Shown: positions 47,429-61,446 of the stretch, one piece after another | Position numbering within the stretch: the stretch's first letter is position 1 | Layout of the letters: the number at the start of each line of letters is the position of its first letter | Origin: a virus | Direction: 5' to 3' (one strand) | IMG/VR virus record: IMGVR_UViG_3300007513_002281 | Location: 1-64,000 of that record | Length of the DNA: 64,000 nucleotides | Made by a program: the position numbers and the translations under genes | The notes under the pieces: model-generated | Seen by the model: the letters and a program-made list of their open reading frames with translations, nothing else | Databases searched by the model: none | Told to the model about the DNA's origin: nothing

Positions 47429-47692
47429 ATGAACGAATATAGACTTTCTGATGAAGTGATTGCACAGATCGCCAAGATTATCCAGGTTGCAATCTTGACA
47501 GGCACAGACGTCGTTGATAATCTTAGAATGATGAGAGTTACAAACTCAAGTGATGAAGAAAGCGTCCTTACACTTACAGACGGGTACAAAGACATGAGTG
47601 AAAGCCAGATAGCTGATTTGCTTGAAAAGGCTTCTCAAGCCTCTGAAATGACTATGGCAGACGCGCTTGAGATCGAGGGAGATCTAAATTGA
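47429..47692 (+). CDS. Small hypothetical protein upstream of pyrophosphatase
   Basis: 87 residues, acidic, with GGGAGAAAC before the ATG. Predicted helical (SDEVIAQIAKIIQVAILTGT); C-terminal ESQIADLLEKASQAS. Its TGA overlaps the TTG start of the next gene, so the two are coupled. I have seen similar small ORFs beside dUTPase-type genes in marine phages but no function is known. Confidence 0.55.
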   Translation: MNEYRLSDEVIAQIAKIIQVAILTGTDVVDNLRMMRVTNSSDEESVLTLTDGYKDMSESQIADLLEKASQASEMTMADALEIEGDLN

Positions 47693-48066
47693 ATGACGAC
47701 AGGCTTCGAGTCATGTTTGATCTAAGAGAGAGGTTTATGCTATCGCTTAAGGAGAAGTTCCCCGACGCTTACCCAGCTTGGCCGCTTGACCTAAGTAAGA
47801 AAAGTGATCAACAGCTTTGTAGAGATATGGCACTAAGAGGAGTTGAAGAGATGTTTGAAGCATTACAGCACCTTAAGAACTGGAAGCCTCATCGACAGAC
47901 AGAAGTTAGTGAGTTTGATCATGATGCTTTTTTAGAAGAGGTAGTCGATGCATTTAATTACTTTTTTTCTTTGATCATTTTATCAGGAAGCTCAGCAGAT
48001 GACCTATATAATTCTTATATAAAGAAGGACTTCATTATACATGAGCGCCTCGATAAAGGATACTAG
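47689..48066 (+). CDS. All-alpha NTP pyrophosphatase (dUTPase/MazG-like)
   Basis: 125 residues; TTG start overlapping the previous stop, with GGGAG upstream. DMALRGVEEMFEALQHLKNW carries the ExxE metal-binding helix, and FLEEVVDAFNYFFSLIILSG supplies the ExxD of the second. This four-helix fold hydrolyses dUTP, dCTP or other dNTPs to monophosphates. In a phage with modified cytosine it could clear dCTP; with normal DNA it would clear dUTP. The next gene overlaps by 26 bases. Confidence 0.72.
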   Translation: MNDDRLRVMFDLRERFMLSLKEKFPDAYPAWPLDLSKKSDQQLCRDMALRGVEEMFEALQHLKNWKPHRQTEVSEFDHDAFLEEVVDAFNYFFSLIILSGSSADDLYNSYIKKDFIIHERLDKGY

Positions 48067-48364
48067 CTTTGCAAAGATAAAGCTAGAAACATGCCATCAA
48101 GACCCTATCTGTTTTTCTTCCCCCAAAGAGCTTAAAAAAATATTAAGTGAAACTAATGAAAAAATACATACCGGTGTGATAGAATTTACATGTAATGAGG
48201 GGTCTAGGCCTCTTGTTGATGAACGTGGATATACACAAATGTCTTCTTTGGTCTTTGATCAGACGCATTCAGATGCTATTATATCCGCTTTTAAAGATGT
48301 TTTTCTGAGGGGGAAAAATGAAAACCAATCTATCGAGCCTGTTTCAGACACAAAAGCAGTTTAA
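48041..48364 (+). CDS. Small hypothetical protein in the pyrophosphatase operon
   Basis: 107 residues. It overlaps the pyrophosphatase before it (26 bases) and the fusion gene after it (47 bases). AAGGA precedes the ATG. The sequence (VIEFTCNEGSRPLVDERGYT) resembles no family I know. Conserved overlaps with both enzymes argue for co-translation, perhaps as a partner. Confidence 0.5.
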   Translation: MSASIKDTSFAKIKLETCHQDPICFSSPKELKKILSETNEKIHTGVIEFTCNEGSRPLVDERGYTQMSSLVFDQTHSDAIISAFKDVFLRGKNENQSIEPVSDTKAV

Positions 48365-49265
48365 TGATCTATTTTTCAATAGAGATAACTTAAGTCAAAT
48401 TGAAAAAGAGGAGATTACTAAGTCGCTATCTTTGGCATTGCACTCTGAGATATCTTCAATGATATCTGGAATTAACTTTAAGGATCATAAGTGCAGCCGA
48501 ATCGAGATAGACGTCAATAAGATTCTTTACGAGTCGGTCGATGCATTCAGATATATCATAGCAATTATGAACCTTTGGGGAATATCTCATGATCAATTTA
48601 CTGATGCATTTGATGATAAGGATCTCTACCTCAAGACCTGTCACAAGATAGAAAGAAATACCTGGGACGGTCGACCTGTCTTGATAGTCGACATGGATGA
48701 TGTCATCGTTGGATTTAGAGATGGATTTATTGGATGGCTTCGAGATAGATACGCTGTTCATGTGGATCCAGAATGTCCAGAGTACTATACTACCACCGCA
48801 GTGAAGGAAAAGGGTCTTAATCCGGAGTCAGTTTTCTTTAGCTTTATTTCTGAAAGAAAACTTCGAGATCTAGAGCCGATCGGAAACATGATTCAAATTT
48901 TAAATAAGCTTCACGATTTAGGATACTGGATTCAGCTGCTTACAGCTCGACCTGAGGAGAATCTTCTCTGTTGTTATGATACATACAGATGGCTTGAGTC
49001 ATCTGGCCTAAAGTATGATAGGCTTAACTTTAGCGGAGAAAAATATCGATGGCTTGCTCAGTCAGAATATTATGATACTGGGTCAATCGTTTGTGCCATT
49101 GATGATTCGCCTAAGCACTCTGCAGAGTATGCCAAGCATGGTATCAACGTTATCTCCCCTTTGACATCTTATAATAGAGAGCTTGAAACTGTTGATAGGG
49201 TCAGGTTTTATGCTGATGATTCAGATGTTTTAGAGATGATAAGGGAATTATCAAAAAACGTGTAG
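48318..49265 (+). CDS. Fusion: all-alpha pyrophosphatase-like domain plus HAD 5'(3')-deoxyribonucleotidase
   Basis: 315 residues. The N-terminal 110 residues are helical with ALHSEISSMISG and KILYESVDAFRYIIAIMNLW, matching the two acidic helices of the all-alpha pyrophosphatase fold, though with weaker acid spacing than its neighbour at 47689. From about residue 120 a HAD phosphatase follows: LIVDMDDVIVGF (nucleophile and acid Asp), LLTARPEE, and VCAIDDSPKHS. The combination would take a dNTP to dNMP and then to a deoxynucleoside. GGGGG lies upstream of the ATG. The fusion joins two consecutive steps. Confidence 0.68.
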   Translation: MKTNLSSLFQTQKQFNDLFFNRDNLSQIEKEEITKSLSLALHSEISSMISGINFKDHKCSRIEIDVNKILYESVDAFRYIIAIMNLWGISHDQFTDAFDDKDLYLKTCHKIERNTWDGRPVLIVDMDDVIVGFRDGFIGWLRDRYAVHVDPECPEYYTTTAVKEKGLNPESVFFSFISERKLRDLEPIGNMIQILNKLHDLGYWIQLLTARPEENLLCCYDTYRWLESSGLKYDRLNFSGEKYRWLAQSEYYDTGSIVCAIDDSPKHSAEYAKHGINVISPLTSYNRELETVDRVRFYADDSDVLEMIRELSKNV

Positions 49266-49889: not shown

Positions 49890-49914
49890 ATTTTATTACC
49901 ACATGAGGAGAAAA

Positions 49915-50889
49915 ATGCCCCAAAATAAAAATCTAGAACCCGTTAATCTTCCAATGACACTAAGATTTGATGAGGAGCCTACTACAGAGTTTCTTAATGA
50001 TCTAGATGCCTTAACCATTGAGCTAGTAGATCATCCTACAGCTGAGCAGATGAGAGACGTTGCTTGGAGGTACGTGAAGGCAACCTGGGCAGATGACCCA
50101 GACTTTACAAATCCATCAGGTGTATCACAGGAGGACCTAAGTGAAAATCTTGAGGACGTTCTTTGTTTTCGAGCCTTACCGACCCCGATGGAGATTTTTA
50201 GCTTTACATTTAAGTTTGCAGGAATTGATCTCCAGACAGTGACTCATCTTATTCGTCACCGAGCAGGCTCGTGGGCAGCACAGTGCACAGGGGACAGGTT
50301 TCTTCATCACGAGCCCTGTCTCGTTCCAAGCGCTGTCGAGAACAGTCCAGACCTTTATCGTCGATGGAAGCGTCATGTAGAGGATGCTAAGCAGCTTTAC
50401 GCAGACATGGTTGATACCCGTCAGATCTCAATGATGGATGCAAGAACCATTCTTCCCAAGTGTCTCTCAACATTCTACTACGGTCGCTTCAATCTCAAGG
50501 ACATCATCGGCTTTGTCAAGCAGCGCTCAGACAAGCAGATCCAACCTTCAGTTGATAATCTTATTGCTGCTAAGATGGCTGCAGAGATTATCAAGGTTCT
50601 TCCTGAGGCAAGTGCTGTAATTGGAACAAGGACACTCACAAGCCCGGCATGGCACTATATCAAGAATGTTCGTGCTGGAACCGGAACTAATCTTTACTGG
50701 CCAGATGATGACAGTGATGAGCACATTGAATATCATCCAAATGATACAATCTATCAGGCTCATCGATATGATCTAAATGGAACAAATCCATCTGATGATG
50801 AGGCTGATGGAAACACTAAGTTTAGACAGATGTGGAACAGTCTAATAGAAGAAATCTCTATACTTGAAGCGATGTACAGGGATTCTTAA
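49915..50889 (+). CDS. thyX: ThyX-like flavin-dependent thymidylate synthase, variant motif
   Basis: 324 residues; ATG at 49915 with GAGGAG 5-6 bases upstream. The ThyX motif is altered: R114-H115-R116 is followed by AGSWAAQCTGDR, so the usual Ser of RHRX7SxR is Cys124 and the Arg is displaced. The downstream ARTILPKCLSTFYYGRFNLK, then LKDIIGFVKQR is the typical ThyX dUMP-binding helix. The enzyme methylates dUMP with folate, FAD and NADPH. The variation may be a phage subfamily or a change of substrate. Codon use is more GC-rich than neighbours. Confidence 0.75.
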   Translation: MPQNKNLEPVNLPMTLRFDEEPTTEFLNDLDALTIELVDHPTAEQMRDVAWRYVKATWADDPDFTNPSGVSQEDLSENLEDVLCFRALPTPMEIFSFTFKFAGIDLQTVTHLIRHRAGSWAAQCTGDRFLHHEPCLVPSAVENSPDLYRRWKRHVEDAKQLYADMVDTRQISMMDARTILPKCLSTFYYGRFNLKDIIGFVKQRSDKQIQPSVDNLIAAKMAAEIIKVLPEASAVIGTRTLTSPAWHYIKNVRAGTGTNLYWPDDDSDEHIEYHPNDTIYQAHRYDLNGTNPSDDEADGNTKFRQMWNSLIEEISILEAMYRDS

Positions 50890-50890
50890 A

Positions 50891-51694
50891 TTGAATCAAG
50901 ACAACTTCCAGATCGGGAGCTGGCTCCGTGTTAAGGACGGAAGTGTTCTTACAAAGACGCTTCCCAGTGTCTTAGATTGCTTTTGTGAAAAACATCCCAT
51001 GACGAGTGGTCCAGTAATAGATAGATTTGAAGAGGGAGAAGTTAGAAATATTGCCTTGTTTGGTCTTCCGGGATCTGGAACAACAGTCGTCTTACAAGTC
51101 GTTAATCACCTTGCTCCTAACAGAGCTGTAAGATCTCATGAGTTCAAAGACACATGTCCTATGATTTTTAAGTTTAATAAAATATTTTATACAATTAGAA
51201 ATCCATTTGATGTTTTTTCTTCTATGGCGAGAAGATTTGTAGAAAACGATCCCTTAGTTGACTTTGATCGAGCAATGAAAGACTCACTTAGATTTATGAG
51301 ATTTAATAAATATATTACCTCTATGAAAGGAATTATAGATACACCTGATGTTGAAGTTTGCTTTTTAAGATACGAAGACTATTTTGACAATGAAGCAAAA
51401 AGGATAGAGGCCTTATCTAATTTTTTAAATCTTGATTTAGACAATAATGAGATCTTAGAGATTGCCAGATTTTTTTCTGTAAACGAAAATATTAAAAGAG
51501 TGGAAAAAATATTTGGCAATCTAAATAGCACGGGTCCCAGACTTAAAGACAAAGAAAGTCAATTAAATTCAAATCACATAGGTCCATCAAGAGGCGCACC
51601 GGGTTCAGGGCAGAATCTAAGCAAAGAGATTCGATCCATGATTTATGCAAAGCACCGGTGGTACTTTGATACCTTTAACTATGAAAATTTATAA
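50891..51694 (+). CDS. Sulfotransferase-like P-loop protein
   Basis: 267 residues from the TTG at 50891, one base after the ThyX stop; an earlier in-frame TTG would overlap ThyX. The 5'-phosphosulfate loop is IALFGLPGSGTTVVLQVVNH and the 3'-phosphate site FYTIRNPFDVFSSM. These two blocks in this order mark PAPS-dependent sulfotransferases. It would need PAPS from the host. Targets could be surface sugars or small molecules. A second sulfotransferase-like gene lies at the right edge. Confidence 0.68.
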   Translation: MNQDNFQIGSWLRVKDGSVLTKTLPSVLDCFCEKHPMTSGPVIDRFEEGEVRNIALFGLPGSGTTVVLQVVNHLAPNRAVRSHEFKDTCPMIFKFNKIFYTIRNPFDVFSSMARRFVENDPLVDFDRAMKDSLRFMRFNKYITSMKGIIDTPDVEVCFLRYEDYFDNEAKRIEALSNFLNLDLDNNEILEIARFFSVNENIKRVEKIFGNLNSTGPRLKDKESQLNSNHIGPSRGAPGSGQNLSKEIRSMIYAKHRWYFDTFNYENL

Positions 51695-51741: not shown

Positions 51742-52194
51742 ATGTTTAAGAAAAAAATATACCTTGCAGCGGGCTGGTTTAACCCAATTCAAGCTCTAGA
51801 GTTAACTCAGCTTGAAGAGGTTTGTGACAATAGAGACTGGATTGATCTTGCTAGTCCGAGGCGAATTTTTGTTTGTCCGCCAAATGCTCCAAAGCACGTT
51901 CAAGATGAAACGTTTGACGGAAACTTGCATCACATTGAGACAGCAGATTTTCTTATTGTCAATACACGTGATAAAGATATTGGGACGATCTGGGAAGCAG
52001 GATATGCTTTTGCAAACAAGGTTCCGATCGTCTATTTTTGCAATGGCCTTCCTGAAGGTGCTAAGTTTAATCTAATGCTTGCGAGAAGCGGTGTCAAGGT
52101 TTGCACTTCTTTTGAGCAGCTTGAAGATTATCTGGATCGATGTTTTGCTGATGGTGATCTTATCTGTGAGCCATACGACCAAGAAATTGAATAA
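51742..52194 (+). CDS. Nucleoside 2-deoxyribosyltransferase-like protein
   Basis: 150 residues. The N-terminal KIYLAAGWFN, a middle ADFLIVNTRDKDIGTIWEAG with the catalytic Glu in WEAGYA, and FNLMLARSG match the deoxyribosyltransferase/DUF1768-like Rossmann family. It swaps bases on deoxynucleosides or hydrolyses modified ones. AAAAGGAGA gives a good ribosome site. Fits the salvage theme of the region. Confidence 0.75.
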   Translation: MFKKKIYLAAGWFNPIQALELTQLEEVCDNRDWIDLASPRRIFVCPPNAPKHVQDETFDGNLHHIETADFLIVNTRDKDIGTIWEAGYAFANKVPIVYFCNGLPEGAKFNLMLARSGVKVCTSFEQLEDYLDRCFADGDLICEPYDQEIE

Positions 52195-56931: not shown

Positions 56932-56950
56932 TATCTGAGTGTGCTACAGC

Positions 56951-59047
56951 ATGAAGATAACAAGAAGACATTTAAGAAGAATCATAAGAGAAGAGCTTCT
57001 TAGTGAGCAGTTTGCACAAGGCCTTGGGCACGAACCTGGTGCAGAGCAGTATGCTTCTGATCCTGATCCCGAGACAGAAGCAGGGTGGATAGATAAGTGT
57101 TGTCACACATGGACACAGATAGATCCCCCGCCGGGTAAGACGGCACCTTACTATGTTGATGGTTGTGGTAACCCAAGAGGTGAGCCCTACGTTGTGGGAG
57201 GAGAGCGCAAGTATTCATGCACATGGTCACGTGGTCCTGATGTTTACCTGGTCGATCGAATTGTAGACTTTGCTGCAGAAGAGGTCTTTCCAGATTTTAT
57301 GGAAATTGCCATCGCAACACCGAAGTGGTTGTTGGACACCACAGTAGACATGGTTGTTGAAACAAGCAAGGATCTGCTAATCGTAGGAACAGTCATGACT
57401 ACAAAGGGTGCTGTTCTTAAGACTGGAGTCATTACACCAGAACAGTATGTGCAATCTCTTCTTAATCTTGCAGTCTTTGTCTTGCTGTGGTATGGCGGTC
57501 CAGTTGCATTCAGGGCTGCTGGCAATGTCCTTTTTTCTGCTCCGTCGACTGCTACAAACAGAATGGCTGGCGAGGCGGTAGAGAATTTAGTGTGGGCGAG
57601 AGCAAATACTTATTCTGATGACGTAGTAAGAGGGTCGTCAGATGCAGTGAAGTATACTGCTAAGACTATGGACGATGCGATTACTGCCTCTAGAAGCCCA
57701 GCTGCAGCCAGCCCGTCACAAAGAACAACGGCATCACCTGATAAACCTGCAGCTTCTGTAGAGAGCCAGGCAGTAGATGAAATAATCCAGTCTCAGAAAG
57801 CAGCAGCAAGACAGGAGGCGAAATCTGAGCTTGCGAGAAGGAGCCAGGAAGCTCGAGCTGAATTAGGGACGGACGTCCCGCAACCTGTCGGAGAACCGGT
57901 TCCCCTGATTCTTAGAAGGCCCAGCTCGACGCAGCGGTCTGGGTGGGAAGACACTGTTAGAGTTGCTATGGGCGCATCTAAAAATCTTCCTGATATTGCA
58001 TATACAACCTTTGCAAAAAAGCTTCTAGTTCGCATAGCCCAAGGCTTGGAACGATCGTCCGCCGATGACATCATGGTCATATATCCAGATAACATCCCGA
58101 CCAGGCCTCCCTGGCTCAGCAGCGAGCCGCCCCCACTCAACCAGGTGTCGATCAGGCAGTTCACACTTAGTGATGTGATATCTTCTTGGGAGAGAATTCC
58201 CGGAAACCCTGCTGGAAAAGGGTTTAAGGATTTTGAGCCTGAATTGATTGCATTTAACATTAGGAATGTGCTGGCAAGAGAAGAGGCAGAGCAGCTGGCA
58301 GCACAGATGTTTGATCAGTTTCCAGTTATGTCAAGTGTATACGGGAAGCCATCTCGTTTTATTGATGAATTTTATAATAATTTTGCTATCAGAGTGGGAC
58401 GCACTTCAATCAACAGACTTGGAGCTCAGTACCCAAATCATATCGAAATAACACCCTTTAGAAGTGGAAATGCTCTTTTAGATAAGTGGGTAGGAGGTAG
58501 ACCGGGATCTAGGCCCCCTCCGCTACTCGGTGGGACAAGACAGTTTATAGCCAATACCCTAGACGATAATTCTCGTGTCTATACACATGAGCTTGATCAC
58601 TGGTTTAGAACAAAAGTAATCGAAAAGACAGGCGCAGACCCGAGCCGACAATACAGGGATGTCTACGACGCAGAAGGGATGGTCATCCGCGAGAACTGGC
58701 TAAAAAAATGGTGGGAGTTTGAGGCTGAGTTCACAACAGTTCAGTTCAGGCTTTTAGACCAGATTGGATCAAAAGGTGCCACACCTGATGTCGTTAGAAT
58801 ACTCGAGAACCCAGTTGAATTTGAGAAATATTTTCTTGCAAATCTCAAAGGCATCACTGTAGATTGGGAAGAGCCTATCTATAATCAATTGATGCAGCGG
58901 ATAAGGGGAAGGCTGTTTGATACTGAGAGAGGTCTTTACTGGGCTCTTAGAAGGGCTCTTGAAATTCCAGACCCACCAAGGAAGCCTCTTCCAGAAAATA
59001 TCCAGATAAATTTGAGAAGATGGTCGACGTTAGCAGGCATAATTTAG
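56951..59047 (+). CDS. Tagged virion protein with HExxH metallopeptidase motif
   Basis: 698 residues; I chose the ATG at 56951 (an in-frame GTG at 56939 is possible), which puts MKITRRHLRRIIREELLSEQ at the N terminus. L-S-E then Q is a candidate T4-type prohead protease site. Near residues 155-185 is a hydrophobic segment (LLNLAVFVLLWYGGPVAF), and about 230-310 is Ala/Ser-rich and disordered. Residues 546-550 are HELDH in RVYTHELDHWFRTKV, a zinc-peptidase core; a downstream EFEAEFTTVQF may supply another Glu ligand. Possibly an ejected protein with peptidase activity. The cysteine-rich stretch near residue 40 is notable. Confidence 0.55.
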   Translation: MKITRRHLRRIIREELLSEQFAQGLGHEPGAEQYASDPDPETEAGWIDKCCHTWTQIDPPPGKTAPYYVDGCGNPRGEPYVVGGERKYSCTWSRGPDVYLVDRIVDFAAEEVFPDFMEIAIATPKWLLDTTVDMVVETSKDLLIVGTVMTTKGAVLKTGVITPEQYVQSLLNLAVFVLLWYGGPVAFRAAGNVLFSAPSTATNRMAGEAVENLVWARANTYSDDVVRGSSDAVKYTAKTMDDAITASRSPAAASPSQRTTASPDKPAASVESQAVDEIIQSQKAAARQEAKSELARRSQEARAELGTDVPQPVGEPVPLILRRPSSTQRSGWEDTVRVAMGASKNLPDIAYTTFAKKLLVRIAQGLERSSADDIMVIYPDNIPTRPPWLSSEPPPLNQVSIRQFTLSDVISSWERIPGNPAGKGFKDFEPELIAFNIRNVLAREEAEQLAAQMFDQFPVMSSVYGKPSRFIDEFYNNFAIRVGRTSINRLGAQYPNHIEITPFRSGNALLDKWVGGRPGSRPPPLLGGTRQFIANTLDDNSRVYTHELDHWFRTKVIEKTGADPSRQYRDVYDAEGMVIRENWLKKWWEFEAEFTTVQFRLLDQIGSKGATPDVVRILENPVEFEKYFLANLKGITVDWEEPIYNQLMQRIRGRLFDTERGLYWALRRALEIPDPPRKPLPENIQINLRRWSTLAGII

Positions 59048-59083: not shown

Positions 59084-59989
59084 ATGCTTAGATTTCCTAC
59101 CGCTACGTTGTTCATTGAAGGCCCAGATTGTTCTGGTAAAACAAGTCTCATCAATCAGATTCACGCTGAGACAAAGTACTCGTGGCACATAATGGATCGG
59201 TCTCAGTTCTCTAGGAAGCTTTTCTGCGATCTTTACAATAGAGTTGTACCTACAGCTAGCGATGATCTTTACTTTGAGATGGGAAATCTTAATAATCGAT
59301 ATGTCTTTTTGCTTCCACCGCTTGATGCGATCTTAAGTAGATTTGAAGACAGGGGTGATGAGTTACATGATAAAAAGTCTCTGATCCAGGTCTACAAGAC
59401 ATTTGGAAAGCATGTTGAGAGAATTAGGACTTTTCCAAACGTTACTGTGATATACGATGAGCCTTCGGTTAAAGATCTCTCGAAAAGGGTGTGTACATCG
59501 CTGCACTTCACTGAGAAGCCGCAGCTAAGAGAGGTATCAGATCAGGTCATTGATCTTGTAGCTGTTAGAGGCGATGAGTCATATCCTGTAAAGTTTACCC
59601 TATACGATGATGGCAAGTTTGAAGAAGCAGACCCAGAAATTTTAAATTATAAGCCTGAGTCAGAATATTATCAGAGAATATTTTCTGAGCTGCACAATAA
59701 GATCACTGATGAGCTAGCTGGAAAGAATGAGTATGACAGAGTTGAGGATCACACCTCAAGAAGGTTTGTCTACTCTGATAGCACCTGTATCTCTTTTATT
59801 CAGGTGGGAATTAGAGATAGAATTATGGACTTTCACGTTGTGATCCGTTCTACAGATGTTAAAGAGATTTTTCCCTATGATTTAAAGTTTTTGTACTATC
59901 TTGCTTCAACGTGTTTTAATAGGTTTAATGACGTGTGCAATGGTGTTAGATTGAGATTTGACTTAAACTCTGCGCACATTATAAGATAA
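59084..59989 (+). CDS. Fusion: P-loop nucleotide kinase plus dCMP hydroxymethylase-like domain
   Basis: 301 residues. Residues 1-150 are a dNMP-kinase-like P-loop domain (FIEGPDCSGKTSLINQI). Residues about 170-301 match the second half of thymidylate synthase. Arg226-Arg227 (SRR) and Cys235 (STCISF) fit the phosphate-binding Arg pair and catalytic Cys. R255-S256 with D258 (IRSTD) fits the RSxD site. D266 (PYDL) replaces TS Asn177, as Asp179 does in T4 dCMP hydroxymethylase. The Cys-to-Asp spacing of 31 is the same as in both enzymes. The TS part is truncated at each end and ends right after AHII. It starts without a leader. Confidence 0.65.
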   Translation: MLRFPTATLFIEGPDCSGKTSLINQIHAETKYSWHIMDRSQFSRKLFCDLYNRVVPTASDDLYFEMGNLNNRYVFLLPPLDAILSRFEDRGDELHDKKSLIQVYKTFGKHVERIRTFPNVTVIYDEPSVKDLSKRVCTSLHFTEKPQLREVSDQVIDLVAVRGDESYPVKFTLYDDGKFEEADPEILNYKPESEYYQRIFSELHNKITDELAGKNEYDRVEDHTSRRFVYSDSTCISFIQVGIRDRIMDFHVVIRSTDVKEIFPYDLKFLYYLASTCFNRFNDVCNGVRLRFDLNSAHIIR

Positions 59990-60011: not shown

Positions 60012-61028
60012 ATGAAAAAGAAAGCATTGGTGACAGGCGGCTGCGGATTTATTGGATCAAATCTATCAAAGAGTCTTGTAGAAGATGGGTGGACTGTTGA
60101 TATAGTCGATGACATGTCATCAGGAGATCTAAACCTTCTCTCAGGGACCAGCATGCGCGTTGTTCCTATTGATCTATTGAGAAACTATTTTGAATCCCCG
60201 GCAGCAGAAAAGAGAGAGACTGACCAGCTTTTAGTCATCCAGGGTGATTTCTCTCACCAAAATACGCTGACGCTAATCAGGGAGGGCAGATATGACGTTG
60301 TCTTTCACCAAGCAGCTATTCCAAGAGTTTCATTTTCTGTTGAGAATCCATCAGCTACGACAGATGTCAACGTAGCTTCTACAGTTAGATTGTTTGAAGC
60401 CTGCATAGACAATGTCAAGAGGATTGTTTGGGCATCTTCCTCTTCTGTTTACGGTGGAGCTGATGTCATGCCAACGCCGACTACTGCACCAAGAAATCCC
60501 AAGTCACCATATGCTTGGCAAAAATCTACCATAGAAGATCTATCTAAGATGTTTTGTAATCTTTATGATATCGATATCGTCTGTCTGCGCTATTTTAATG
60601 TCTTTGGTCCGGGACAGCTAGCTGGAAGCCCCTATTCCACAGCAGTTTCTGCTTGGTGTCACGCAATTAAGAATGATCTTCCCCTAAGAAGCGATGGAGA
60701 CGGAACACAAAGCCGTGATCTGTGCTACGTTGATAATGTTGTCAGTGCTAACATTCTTGCTGCTATTTCTGATACTGTTTTTTCCGGAAAGGCATACAAT
60801 GTTTGTTGTGGAGATAGAACAAGCAATCGTGAGATTCTGAACTTTTTAACTGAGAGATTTCCTGGTATAGATATAGAGGATGCCCCTTGGCGAACAGGAG
60901 ATGTCATGCACACACAAGGTGATTGGTCTGCAGCAAACATTGATTTTGGATATGAACCTTTGGTAAAGTTTTGGCAAGGGATAGAGAGAACATTAGAGTG
61001 GTGGGAATTAAAAGAAGATGAGTTATGA
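60012..61028 (+). CDS. NAD-dependent sugar-nucleotide epimerase/dehydratase
   Basis: 338 residues of the extended SDR family. Dinucleotide loop VTGGCGFIGSNL, Asp for the ribose (DIVDDMSSGD), active-site triad WASSSSVYGG with YAWQKST (YxxxK). This is the UDP-glucose 4-epimerase/dTDP-glucose dehydratase type; the sugar cannot be fixed from sequence. It makes a nucleotide sugar for host surface remodelling or, in this cluster, for glycosylating modified bases. GGAG precedes the ATG. It overlaps the next gene by 11 bases. Confidence 0.85.
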   Translation: MKKKALVTGGCGFIGSNLSKSLVEDGWTVDIVDDMSSGDLNLLSGTSMRVVPIDLLRNYFESPAAEKRETDQLLVIQGDFSHQNTLTLIREGRYDVVFHQAAIPRVSFSVENPSATTDVNVASTVRLFEACIDNVKRIVWASSSSVYGGADVMPTPTTAPRNPKSPYAWQKSTIEDLSKMFCNLYDIDIVCLRYFNVFGPGQLAGSPYSTAVSAWCHAIKNDLPLRSDGDGTQSRDLCYVDNVVSANILAAISDTVFSGKAYNVCCGDRTSNREILNFLTERFPGIDIEDAPWRTGDVMHTQGDWSAANIDFGYEPLVKFWQGIERTLEWWELKEDEL

Positions 61029-61446
61029 TACTAAAAAACATGTTAAGTCTTCATGGGTTTCAAGTGGAAACAATGGTCGGATTACTGAGAAACCCTGGGG
61101 ATATGAGACATCTTGGGCTGGATTCGATGGAATTCATGGAAAGACTCTTTTTATATGTGAGGGAAAGAGAACCAGCCTAAAGTATCACACATTAAAATCA
61201 GAGGTGCTTTTTGTTAGATCTGGTCGTGCTGAGGTTGAATTCGGAGATGAGCTTTCTTTAACAGACCCAGTGGGACATCCTTTTAAAAAGGAAACTGTAA
61301 CGCCAGGAAGCTGCTTACTAGCTCAAAGCGGATCACCCTATAGAATAAAAGCTTTAACAGATTGTGAGATAATAGAAATAGGAAATCACCTTAGTGACAA
61401 ACCTATTAGAATAGAGGATGACTATGGCAGAGCTAACTCAGAATAA
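61018..61446 (+). CDS. Cupin, mannose-6-phosphate isomerase/GMP-like
   Basis: 142 residues. EKPWGYETSW at the N terminus, KTLFICEGKRTSLKYHTLKS with a metal-binding His, EVLFVRSGRAEVEFG and PGSCLLAQSGSPYRIKA are the cupin barrel of the type II mannose-6-phosphate isomerase C-terminal domain. Works with the epimerase on a nucleotide sugar. Overlaps both neighbours. Confidence 0.75.
   Translation: MSYDTKKHVKSSWVSSGNNGRITEKPWGYETSWAGFDGIHGKTLFICEGKRTSLKYHTLKSEVLFVRSGRAEVEFGDELSLTDPVGHPFKKETVTPGSCLLAQSGSPYRIKALTDCEIIEIGNHLSDKPIRIEDDYGRANSE

What the first reader, a model, noticed from the sequence alone, without database searches (positions are those of the whole stretch)
59084..59989. Kinase fused to a thymidylate-synthase-fold domain with Asp at the dUMP-selecting Asn: candidate hydroxymethyl-dCMP maker
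The C-terminal domain aligns without gaps from C235 to D266 with E. coli ThyA C146-N177 and T4 gp42 C148-D179 (both recalled, not searched). It keeps the catalytic Cys, the RSxD phosphate site and an SRR pair, but has Asp in place of Asn. In TS, Asn-to-Asp shifts preference from dUMP to dCMP, and T4 dCMP hydroxymethylase has this Asp. Fusion to a dNMP-kinase-like P-loop would join two consecutive steps of a T4-like hmC pathway in one polypeptide. The TS domain lacks its N-terminal third and the tail, so it may be inactive or depend on partners.
Basis: partly seen in the sequence, partly recalled or inferred. Interest (0 to 1): 0.8.

Follow-up and report, generated by a model that had tools for sequence, protein, structure and literature searches.

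The report
Phage kinase fused to cytosine modifier
A family of uncultivated phages carries one protein that joins a nucleotide kinase to a stripped-down thymidylate-synthase-like domain set up for the cytosine nucleotide; it probably makes and activates a modified cytosine for the phage DNA, but which chemical group it adds is not settled.

Summary
Window ORF 59084-59989 (301 aa) is a nucleotide-kinase fold (residues 3-147) fused to a thymidylate-synthase (TS) fold (about 147-301), shown by a confident model and fold comparison. In 18 sequences (window plus 17 loci, 37-68% identical in this domain) the TS active-site equivalents R226 R227 C235 R255 S256 D266 H298 never vary; D266 replaces the dUMP-selecting Asn, pointing to dCMP. 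Both halves are under purifying selection. 'Hydroxymethyl' is not established: the top-ranked solved structure is AfhB, a dCMP hydroxylase with the same Cys and Asp, and the family departs from hydroxymethylases at Gly175 and Tyr218 where AfhB also does; sequence methods disagree. Best reading: a bifunctional enzyme that modifies dCMP at C5 (hydroxylation more likely than hydroxymethylation) and phosphorylates the product. Context: a T4 gp56-like dCTPase, a divergent ThyX but no conventional TS, an epimerase gene downstream in 18 of 18 loci, and separate kinase/TS(Asp) gene pairs in Pelagibacter phages. Chemistry, cofactor and virion bases are untested; no glycosyltransferase of four Pfam families was found in the window's record.

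The parts
59084..59989 (+). bifunctional protein: nucleotide kinase + minimal TS-fold domain (301 aa)
59084..59512 (+). kinase domain, residues 1-143 (dNK/dNMP-kinase fold)
   Evidence: VIA Z 14.3 to YorR 3kb2, 13.8 to M. mycoides deoxyadenosine kinase, 13.0 to a dTMP kinase; phrog_761 in 19 of 19
59117..59143 (+). Walker A / P-loop EGPDCSGKT, residues 12-20
   Evidence: E12 G13 D15 G18 K19 invariant in 19 rows
59195..59203 (+). D38-R39-S40 motif of the kinase
   Evidence: invariant in 19 rows
59513..59986 (+). TS-fold domain, residues 144-301
   Evidence: model pLDDT 91.7, pTM 0.88; 9iqu Z 11.8, rmsd 2.9, 142 aligned
59711..59713 (+). E210, invariant Glu at the end of helix 193-211; candidate equivalent of ThyA E58 (inferred from order of elements only)
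   Evidence: 18 of 18 Glu; secondary structure
59759..59764 (+). R226-R227, equivalent of ThyA R126-R127
   Evidence: 18 of 18
59786..59788 (+). C235, equivalent of catalytic Cys (ThyA C146, T4 gp42 C148)
   Evidence: 18 of 18
59846..59851 (+). R255-S256, equivalent of ThyA R166-S167
   Evidence: 18 of 18
59879..59881 (+). D266, Asp in place of ThyA N177 (T4 gp42 D179)
   Evidence: 18 of 18
59975..59977 (+). H298, equivalent of ThyA H207
   Evidence: 18 of 18
60012..61028 (+). nucleotide-sugar epimerase-like gene downstream of the fusion gene
   Evidence: Pfam Epimerase 5.9e-45; solved relatives include WbgU; downstream in 18 of 18 loci, within about 100 bases in 15 and within about 1.1 kb in all
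61018..61446 (+). cupin protein, perhaps of sugar-isomerase type
   Evidence: weak Pfam matches Cupin_2 0.0031 and MannoseP_isomer 0.039, below cut-offs; phrog_7851 2.6e-15 'cysteine dioxygenase'; 14 of 18 loci
47689..48066 (+). T4 gp56-like dCTPase/dUTPase, possible dCMP supplier
   Evidence: hhalign of the two single sequences E 1.7e-5, probability 79, 123 columns; phrog_12184 nucleotide pyrophosphohydrolase 2.7e-17
49903..50889 (+). divergent ThyX, candidate supplier of thymidylate
   Evidence: PF02511 3.8e-17; below the NCBIfam thyX cut-off (37.6 against 87.9 bits)

Best explanation
The protein is a bifunctional cytosine-modifying enzyme. The C-terminal domain is a minimal TS fold that binds dCMP (phosphate held by R226', R227', R255, S256; base read by D266; sugar by H298), attacks C6 with C235, and adds a group at C5. 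The group is more likely hydroxyl (5-hydroxy-dCMP, flavin/O2 chemistry as the AfhB entries suggest) than hydroxymethyl. The N-terminal kinase then phosphorylates the modified dCMP to the diphosphate, so the product is channelled to the DNA precursor pool; a host NDP kinase and the phage polymerase would finish. Shown: both folds (predicted models), the fusion, conserved active-site residues, selection, gene context. Inferred: residue roles (by analogy to TS), substrate dCMP, order of steps, channelling. Open: cofactor and exact group (my odds, given that it modifies dCMP: hydroxylation about 0.6, hydroxymethylation about 0.3, other 0.1).
For: TS fold: 50 of 50 VIA rows shown for the isolated domain are TS-superfamily; AfhB 9iqu first with Z 11.8 (rmsd 2.9, 142 aligned), 9iqc 11.5, MilA 11.1, ordinary TS 10.5 and below. 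Foldseek: 9iqu 1.2e-6, T4 dCMP hydroxymethylase 8.3e-5. 9iqu/9iqc are the only solved sequences the domain profile finds, though at E 0.77-0.79. hhalign: AfhB set E 2.4e-6, gp42 set 1.9e-4. FastTree on a 64-letter core joins the family with AfhB (0.84) inside a gp42+AfhB group (0.955). Asp at 177 switches TS to dCMP and goes with modified cytosine in metagenomes (PMC8670742, section 11). T4 W82, Y96, D171, G175, Y218 are 27 of 27 in the gp42 set; AfhB has N, V, F at the last three in 15 of 15; this family has D13/N3/E2, never Gly, I13/L4/V1. Context: gp56-like dCTPase; epimerase in 18 of 18 and dCMP deaminase in 16 of 18 loci; PF00303 in 0 of 12 records, ThyX in 10 of 12. The only 2 of 50,697 phage records with a match (both in the kinase half) have that kinase gene overlapping a TS gene whose product has Asp at the 177 position; same gene order in 9 of 9 viral loci tested. 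Omega 0.06-0.16 for both halves in 8 of 12 comparisons.
Against: hmmsearch with single-family profiles scores the family higher with the gp42 model (best 13.2 bits, mean 8.4) than with the AfhB model (best 7.0, mean 4.1), and the 32-residue core has more identities with gp42 (12) than with RB69ORF048c (8). Z values of AfhB and MilA are tied. The tree rests on 64 letters and long branches, its gp42 group has support 0.447, and the Asp-bearing TS of Pelagibacter phages and of GMA2 fall outside, so the separate kinase/TS pairs are analogues, not shown ancestors. The internal stretch that bears Trp82 and Tyr96 in T4 gp42 has no counterpart in the alignment, so neither cofactor is shown to fit. Window residue D258 is the folate-type Asp, not AfhB's Asn. 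No glycosyltransferase of four Pfam families in the window's record. dS was high or saturated in the selection test.
Confidence: 0.5

Rival explanations
1. One reading: a folate-dependent dCMP hydroxymethylase (T4 gp42 type) fused to the kinase that phosphorylates hm-dCMP.
For: Cys + Asp as in T4 gp42 and 12/32 identities in the core; the gp42 HMM gives the best single-family hmmsearch scores; T4 gp1 kinase accepts HMdCMP but not dCMP by the record's own note; a gp56-like dCTPase is present.
Against: Gly175 and Tyr218 equivalents never present, Asp171 equivalent variable; no counterpart of Trp82 and Tyr96 in the alignment; AfhB ranks above T4 dCMP hydroxymethylase in Foldseek.
Confidence: 0.22
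2. The TS-fold domain is a non-catalytic dCMP (or modified dCMP) binding module that regulates or feeds the kinase.
For: Missing internal stretch and tail; several residues invariant in gp42 lost.
Against: The Cys equivalent to the catalytic one is invariant in 18 of 18; the domain is under purifying selection.
Confidence: 0.12
3. The kinase acts on DNA: it phosphorylates hydroxylated bases already in DNA (like phage 5-hmdU DNA kinases) as a step of hypermodification, rather than a nucleotide.
For: A phage 5-hmdU DNA kinase (SP10, E 9.3e-4) is among the BFVD matches; a gene annotated 'P-loop nucleotide kinase 1' sits beside a TS gene in a Kuttervirus.
Against: Best solved matches are small nucleotide/nucleoside kinases (YorR, dAK, dTMP kinase); no known hypermodification enzyme was recognised among the genes I scanned.
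Confidence: 0.1
4. The TS-fold domain is a thymidylate synthase (dUMP) and the kinase a dTMP kinase, i.e. an ordinary thymidylate pathway fusion.
For: phrog names 'thymidylate kinase' and 'thymidylate synthase'; thymidine kinase and dCMP deaminase nearby; the ThyX of the record is divergent and might not make dTMP.
Against: Asp, not Asn, at the selecting position in 18 of 18; a ThyX match in 10 of 12 records; loss of Gly175 and Tyr218 equivalents.
Confidence: 0.04

Closest known systems
AfhB / 5-hydroxy-dCMP synthase of RB69-type phages (PDB 9iqu, 9iqc; RB69ORF048c)
   Same: TS fold, Cys, RR, RS, Asp at the 177 position, His, no Gly or Tyr at the G175 and Y218 positions; top-ranked solved structure. 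Its flavin use is taken from the title of 9iqc, its 5-hydroxylation from PMC13390438 and the identity of a 53-residue stretch with RB69ORF048c.
   Different: AfhB-type proteins are stand-alone, have the internal stretch and 14 residues after the His; Asn at the D171 position (15 of 15; D in the window); 14-16% identity in fold alignments; FAD use of the window protein not testable here.
T4 gp42 dCMP hydroxymethylase (PDB 1b5d, 6a9a)
   Same: Cys148/C235 and Asp179/D266 with a gapless 32-residue core (12 identities).
   Different: gp42 is stand-alone and folate-dependent, with Trp82, Tyr96, Gly175 and Tyr218 that have no counterpart or are replaced here.
CMP hydroxymethylase MilA (PDB 5b6e, 5jnh)
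   Same: fold; Z 11.1 over 142 residues, tied with AfhB.
   Different: a 318-residue enzyme acting on CMP by its title; no kinase.
Kinase/TS gene pair of Pelagibacter phages HTVC119P and HTVC200P
   Same: related kinase (26.7% over 44% of the query, E 7e-4) whose gene overlaps a TS gene with Asp at the selecting position.
   Different: two separate proteins; the TS there is full length, matches NCBIfam TS models (6.8e-18, below the curated cut-off) and is not the closest relative of the fused domain.
YorR (B. subtilis) and deoxynucleoside/dTMP kinases
   Same: kinase fold, Z 13.0-14.3; P-loop and a DR motif (in those families recalled).
   Different: no TS domain; here the DR motif lies only 19 residues after the P-loop Lys, nearer than in dTMP kinases (recalled).

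Membership tests
TS / pyrimidine hydroxymethylase superfamily | TS fold | tested here: met
   50 of 50 VIA rows shown, Z 9.6-11.8; predicted model
TS / pyrimidine hydroxymethylase superfamily | catalytic Cys, RR pair, RS, His207 equivalents | tested here: met
   18 of 18 sequences
TS / pyrimidine hydroxymethylase superfamily | catalytic Glu58/Glu60 | tested here: inconclusive
   E210 invariant at the end of helix 193-211, but no residue-level superposition was available
Pfam PF00303 Thymidylat_synt | profile match over gathering score | tested here: not met
   no match listed at E<=1 for any of 19 members; 0 of 12 records
T4-type dCMP hydroxymethylase | Asp at the Asn177 position | tested here: met
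   D266 18 of 18
T4-type dCMP hydroxymethylase | Gly175 and Tyr218, invariant in 27 of 27 gp42-type sequences | tested here: not met
   never Gly; I/L/V in place of Tyr in 18 of 18
T4-type dCMP hydroxymethylase | 5-hydroxymethyl-dCMP produced with methylene-tetrahydrofolate | not testable with these tools
   needs enzyme assay
AfhB-type dCMP 5-hydroxylase | nearest fold | tested here: inconclusive
   first in Foldseek and VIA, but Z tied with MilA
AfhB-type dCMP 5-hydroxylase | Asn, Val, Phe at the D171, G175, Y218 positions (15 of 15) | tested here: not met
   window has D258, I262, I300; N at the first site in 3 of 18 members
AfhB-type dCMP 5-hydroxylase | FAD binding and 5-hydroxy-dCMP formation | not testable with these tools
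   no coordinates or assay
dNMP / deoxynucleoside kinase superfamily | P-loop, DR motif, kinase fold | tested here: met
   invariant E12 G13 D15 G18 K19 and D38 R39 S40 in 19 rows; fold
dNMP / deoxynucleoside kinase superfamily | phosphorylates (modified) dCMP | not testable with these tools
   needs assay

The most novel reading that the evidence does not exclude
A third class of TS-fold cytosine modifier: a TS fold of about 158 residues (the TS-fold chains listed have 217-318), without the stretch that bears Trp82 and Tyr96 in T4 gp42, carries out flavin- or otherwise driven C5 oxidation of dCMP and hands 5-hydroxy-dCMP directly to a covalently attached kinase. This would be a self-contained dCMP to 5-hydroxy-dCDP machine that feeds a modified-cytosine genome, perhaps further decorated with a sugar made by the adjacent epimerase.
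Probability: 0.25. Interest if true: 0.82.

Novelty: new variant of a known kind. Interest (0 to 1): 0.62.

Why it matters
Phages replace cytosine with modified forms to evade restriction and CRISPR. If this enzyme works as proposed, it links base modification and nucleotide activation in one chain, and it shows how far the TS fold can be cut down. It also warns that 'TS fold + Cys + Asp' cannot be read as hydroxymethylase by sequence alone, since a 5-hydroxylase shares that signature. In the collections scanned, full-length relatives were found only in uncultivated viruses, whose cytosine may thus be modified in a way that can be tested by expressing a single gene.

Tried and rejected
Homologues in cellular genomes: 161 pattern matches in genome contigs, none a relative; plasmids and metagenome contigs were not searched. 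Glycosyltransferases that would use the epimerase product: PF00535 1 of 10 records (G005), PF00534 2 of 10 (G005, G007), TAGT PF20691 0 of 10, AGT PF11440 0 of 10; none in the window's record; T4 beta-glucosyltransferase was not tried. DHFR: 0 of 10, uninformative for a hydroxymethylase. Deciding between gp42 and AfhB by sequence: methods disagree (hhalign and tree favour AfhB, hmmsearch and core identities favour gp42). For these I used 14 of 16 AfhB-type loci plus RB69, 25 of 80 gp42-type loci plus T4 and avDM1 (one, L089, has an internal stop, read as X), and 5 of 11 Pelagibacter-type loci plus 2 phages; in the tree 24 of the 27 gp42 sequences passed my pattern filter. Kinase next to TS was tested in 9 of the 11 Pelagibacter-type loci; the other 2 begin inside the TS gene. 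T4 dCMP hydroxymethylase is not among the 50 VIA rows shown for the isolated domain, which excludes nothing. T4 gp1 kinase was fetched but not compared with the kinase half. Rows dropped: of 24 family loci 18 entered A3 (not used: L003, L004, 100% copies; L011, L014, L015, presumed copies by equal scores, not aligned; L026, partial); A4 drops L018 too; the synteny count used 18 loci (L003 and 17 others), each only about 6 kb either side, so absences there may be cut-offs. Literature: 7 searches; the two with fusion terms listed no paper on a kinase-TS fusion in phages by title or abstract. The primary papers on 5-hydroxycytosine (Lee 2025, Mahler 2025) I saw only as citations; Lee 2025 is not held, Mahler was not looked up. 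PMC8670742: passages and section 11; PMC13390438: passages and section 7; PMC6400193, PMC7824862, PMC12838424: passages. Recalled: the ThyX motif, TS topology, TS residue roles beyond those passages.

Full report
What is there. The ORF at 59084-59989 on the + strand encodes 301 residues. It lies in a 110,043-base virus record. In the collections scanned, full-length relatives were found only in IMG/VR: 24 loci over three scans, none in genome contigs. In named phages only the kinase half finds a match, 2 of 50,697 records, both Pelagibacter phages of one genus. The 18 relatives in alignment A3 are single polypeptides of about 300 residues, 36-59% identical to the window protein, so the fusion is stable in this family.

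Two domains, both confidently modelled. AlphaFold2 on 19 sequences gives mean pLDDT 91.7 and pTM 0.88; the C-terminal 158 residues alone give the same values. Residues 3-147 match nucleotide kinases: YorR Z 14.3, M. mycoides deoxyadenosine kinase 13.8, a dTMP kinase 13.0. For the isolated C-terminal domain all 50 rows shown are TS-superfamily proteins, led by the dCMP hydroxylase AfhB (9iqu, Z 11.8, rmsd 2.9, 142 aligned), 9iqc (11.5, titled a riboflavin-dependent monooxygenase with dCMP and FAD) and MilA (11.1), then ordinary TS from 10.5 down. Rows within 1 of each other are tied. Foldseek: 9iqu 1.2e-6, 9iqc 4.5e-6, MilA 6.5e-5, T4 dCMP hydroxymethylase 8.3e-5, first ordinary TS 8.8e-5.

C235-D266 against ThyA C146-N177 has 9 of 32 identities (1 of 2000 shuffles reaches the score); against T4 gp42 C148-D179, 12 of 32 (0 of 2000); against RB69ORF048c, 8 of 32 (5 of 2000). 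In 18 sequences 27 of 158 C-terminal positions are invariant, and R226, R227, C235, R255, S256, D266 and H298 are all among them. For seven positions drawn at random this would happen about 4 times in a million (27/158 to the seventh power, my arithmetic). Both halves look to be under purifying selection: in six pairs of relatives omega is 0.06-0.16 in the 8 of 12 comparisons where dS could be computed; the other 4 were saturated and dS was high (1.6 or more) in the rest.

A correction. The domain does not lack its N-terminal third. Residues 6-158 of the isolated model align with E. coli TS residues 1-210. The order helix 148-161, strand 169-175, helix 193-211, three strands, helix 263-281, strand 287-294 is the TS order (recalled). 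What is missing is internal: about 48 residues fewer before the RR pair and 11 fewer between RR and Cys, plus the last 54 residues of ThyA (residue counts). In the alignment the stretches that carry Trp80 and Tyr94 of ThyA have no counterpart. The invariant E210 could stand for Glu58, but I had no residue-level superposition.

Which chemistry? Asp at position 177 points to dCMP: it switches TS from dUMP to dCMP and marks TS genes on contigs with modified cytosine (PMC8670742, section 11). But this signature does not fix the group added. Mosigvirus phages make 5-hydroxy-dCMP with a TS-superfamily enzyme homologous to, but distinct from, the hydroxymethylase (PMC13390438, section 7). A 53-residue stretch of AfhB is identical in RB69ORF048c, and that protein keeps the Cys and the Asp. 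In 27 gp42-type sequences T4 W82, Y96, D171, G175 and Y218 are invariant; in 15 AfhB-type sequences the last three are Asn, Val and Phe; in this family they are D13/N3/E2, never Gly, and I13/L4/V1. D171, Y96 and Y218 belong to the water network around the pterin in T4 dCMP hydroxymethylase (PMC6400193, passages); that G175 matters for folate is my inference from its invariance. So the family keeps the dCMP site and has lost some folate-enzyme residues, as AfhB has. Profile-profile comparison (AfhB E 2.4e-6, gp42 1.9e-4) and a small tree (support 0.84) agree. Against this, single-family HMMs score the gp42 model higher (13.2 against 7.0 bits at best), the core has more identities with gp42, and the window's own D258 is the folate-type residue. 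I therefore lean to hydroxylation, about 2 to 1, and do not file the protein as a member of either family.

Gene context. The record has no PF00303 match, nor have 11 relatives' records, while a ThyX match is present in 10 of 12. Classic TS and ThyX are anticorrelated in jumbo phages (PMC7824862, passage), so a dTMP role for the TS-fold domain is not needed, with the caveat that this ThyX is divergent. ORF 47689-48066 resembles T4 gp56 dCTPase (hhalign E 1.7e-5), which would supply dCMP. A thymidine kinase is nearby, and a dCMP deaminase lies just past the window's end, at 64161-64571 of the record. In 18 of 18 loci a nucleotide-sugar epimerase gene lies downstream of the fusion gene, within about 100 bases in 15 and about 1.1 kb in all; thymidine kinase in 17, DHH and dCMP deaminase in 16 each, cupin in 14. 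This recalls the isomerase/epimerase cluster of arabinosylating phages, but no glycosyltransferase of PF00535, PF00534, PF20691 or PF11440 was found in the window's record, so the sugar step is only a lead; the epimerase may serve something else.

Independent support for the pairing. In both named phages with a related kinase (one genus) that gene overlaps a TS gene, and the TS has Asp at the 177 position. The gene order holds in 9 of 9 viral loci tested. Gordonia phage GMA2 has a gene annotated thymidylate kinase before a TS gene that has Asp by gapless count, and a Kuttervirus has a P-loop kinase gene beside a TS gene with Asn. A kinase beside a TS-type gene thus recurs. The TS domains of these pairs are not the closest relatives of the fused domain, so the fusion is an analogue of the pair and not shown to descend from it.

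Mechanism proposed. Shown: two folds (models), conserved active-site residues, selection, context. Inferred: dCTP to dCMP (gp56-like enzyme); dCMP bound with D266 reading the base and C235 adding to C6; C5 oxidised (flavin) or hydroxymethylated (folate); product phosphorylated by the attached kinase; host NDP kinase and phage polymerase complete incorporation. The missing internal stretch may be made up for by the kinase domain or by a second subunit: in T4 dCMP hydroxymethylase the phosphate is held by Arg123 and Arg124 of the opposite protomer (PMC6400193, passage).

Noticed in passing
window 49903-50889 (+): Divergent ThyX (PF02511 3.8e-17) whose signature reads RHRAGSWAAQCTGDRF and lacks the usual NExS (motif recalled). 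Record G008 holds both a strong ThyX match (3.3e-47) and a weaker one (6.2e-19), so the divergent type may do something other than make dTMP.
   Followed up: partly
window 47689-48066 and 48318-49265 (+): Two all-alpha NTP pyrophosphatase (dUTPase_2-like) domains, the second fused to a deoxyribonucleotidase (NT5C) domain; the first resembles T4 gp56 dCTPase.
   Followed up: partly
window 51742-52194 (+): Nucleoside 2-deoxyribosyltransferase (PF05014 1.8e-11) in the same nucleotide-metabolism stretch; found near the fusion gene in 6 of 18 loci (flanks limited).
   Followed up: no
window 50864-51694 (+); L047:1074-2165; L048:14337-15071: Three sulfotransferase-like genes in one phage record (the second is below its Pfam cut-off).
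   Followed up: no
window 56939-59047 (+); L049:9159; L005:1067, 2087, 5169: Proteins without a recognised family (those in L005 were not searched) share an N-terminal leader like MKITxxxxRRIIREEL; 3 such ORFs lie in a row upstream of the fusion gene in L005. It looks like a targeting or packaging signal. The pattern occurs in 1 of 137 window ORFs at the N-terminus and in 0 of 73 at residues 60-90; it also hits the epimerase in L005 and L024, probably by chance.
   Followed up: partly
L049:1174-3595: MoxR-like AAA ATPase (AAA_5) next to a metallopeptidase-vWA protein (DUF2201), as described for group 2.2 jumbo phages in PMC7824862 (passage).
   Followed up: no
L047:16265-17866: A GroEL-like chaperonin ORF (identified by eye, not searched) in the phage record.
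   Followed up: no
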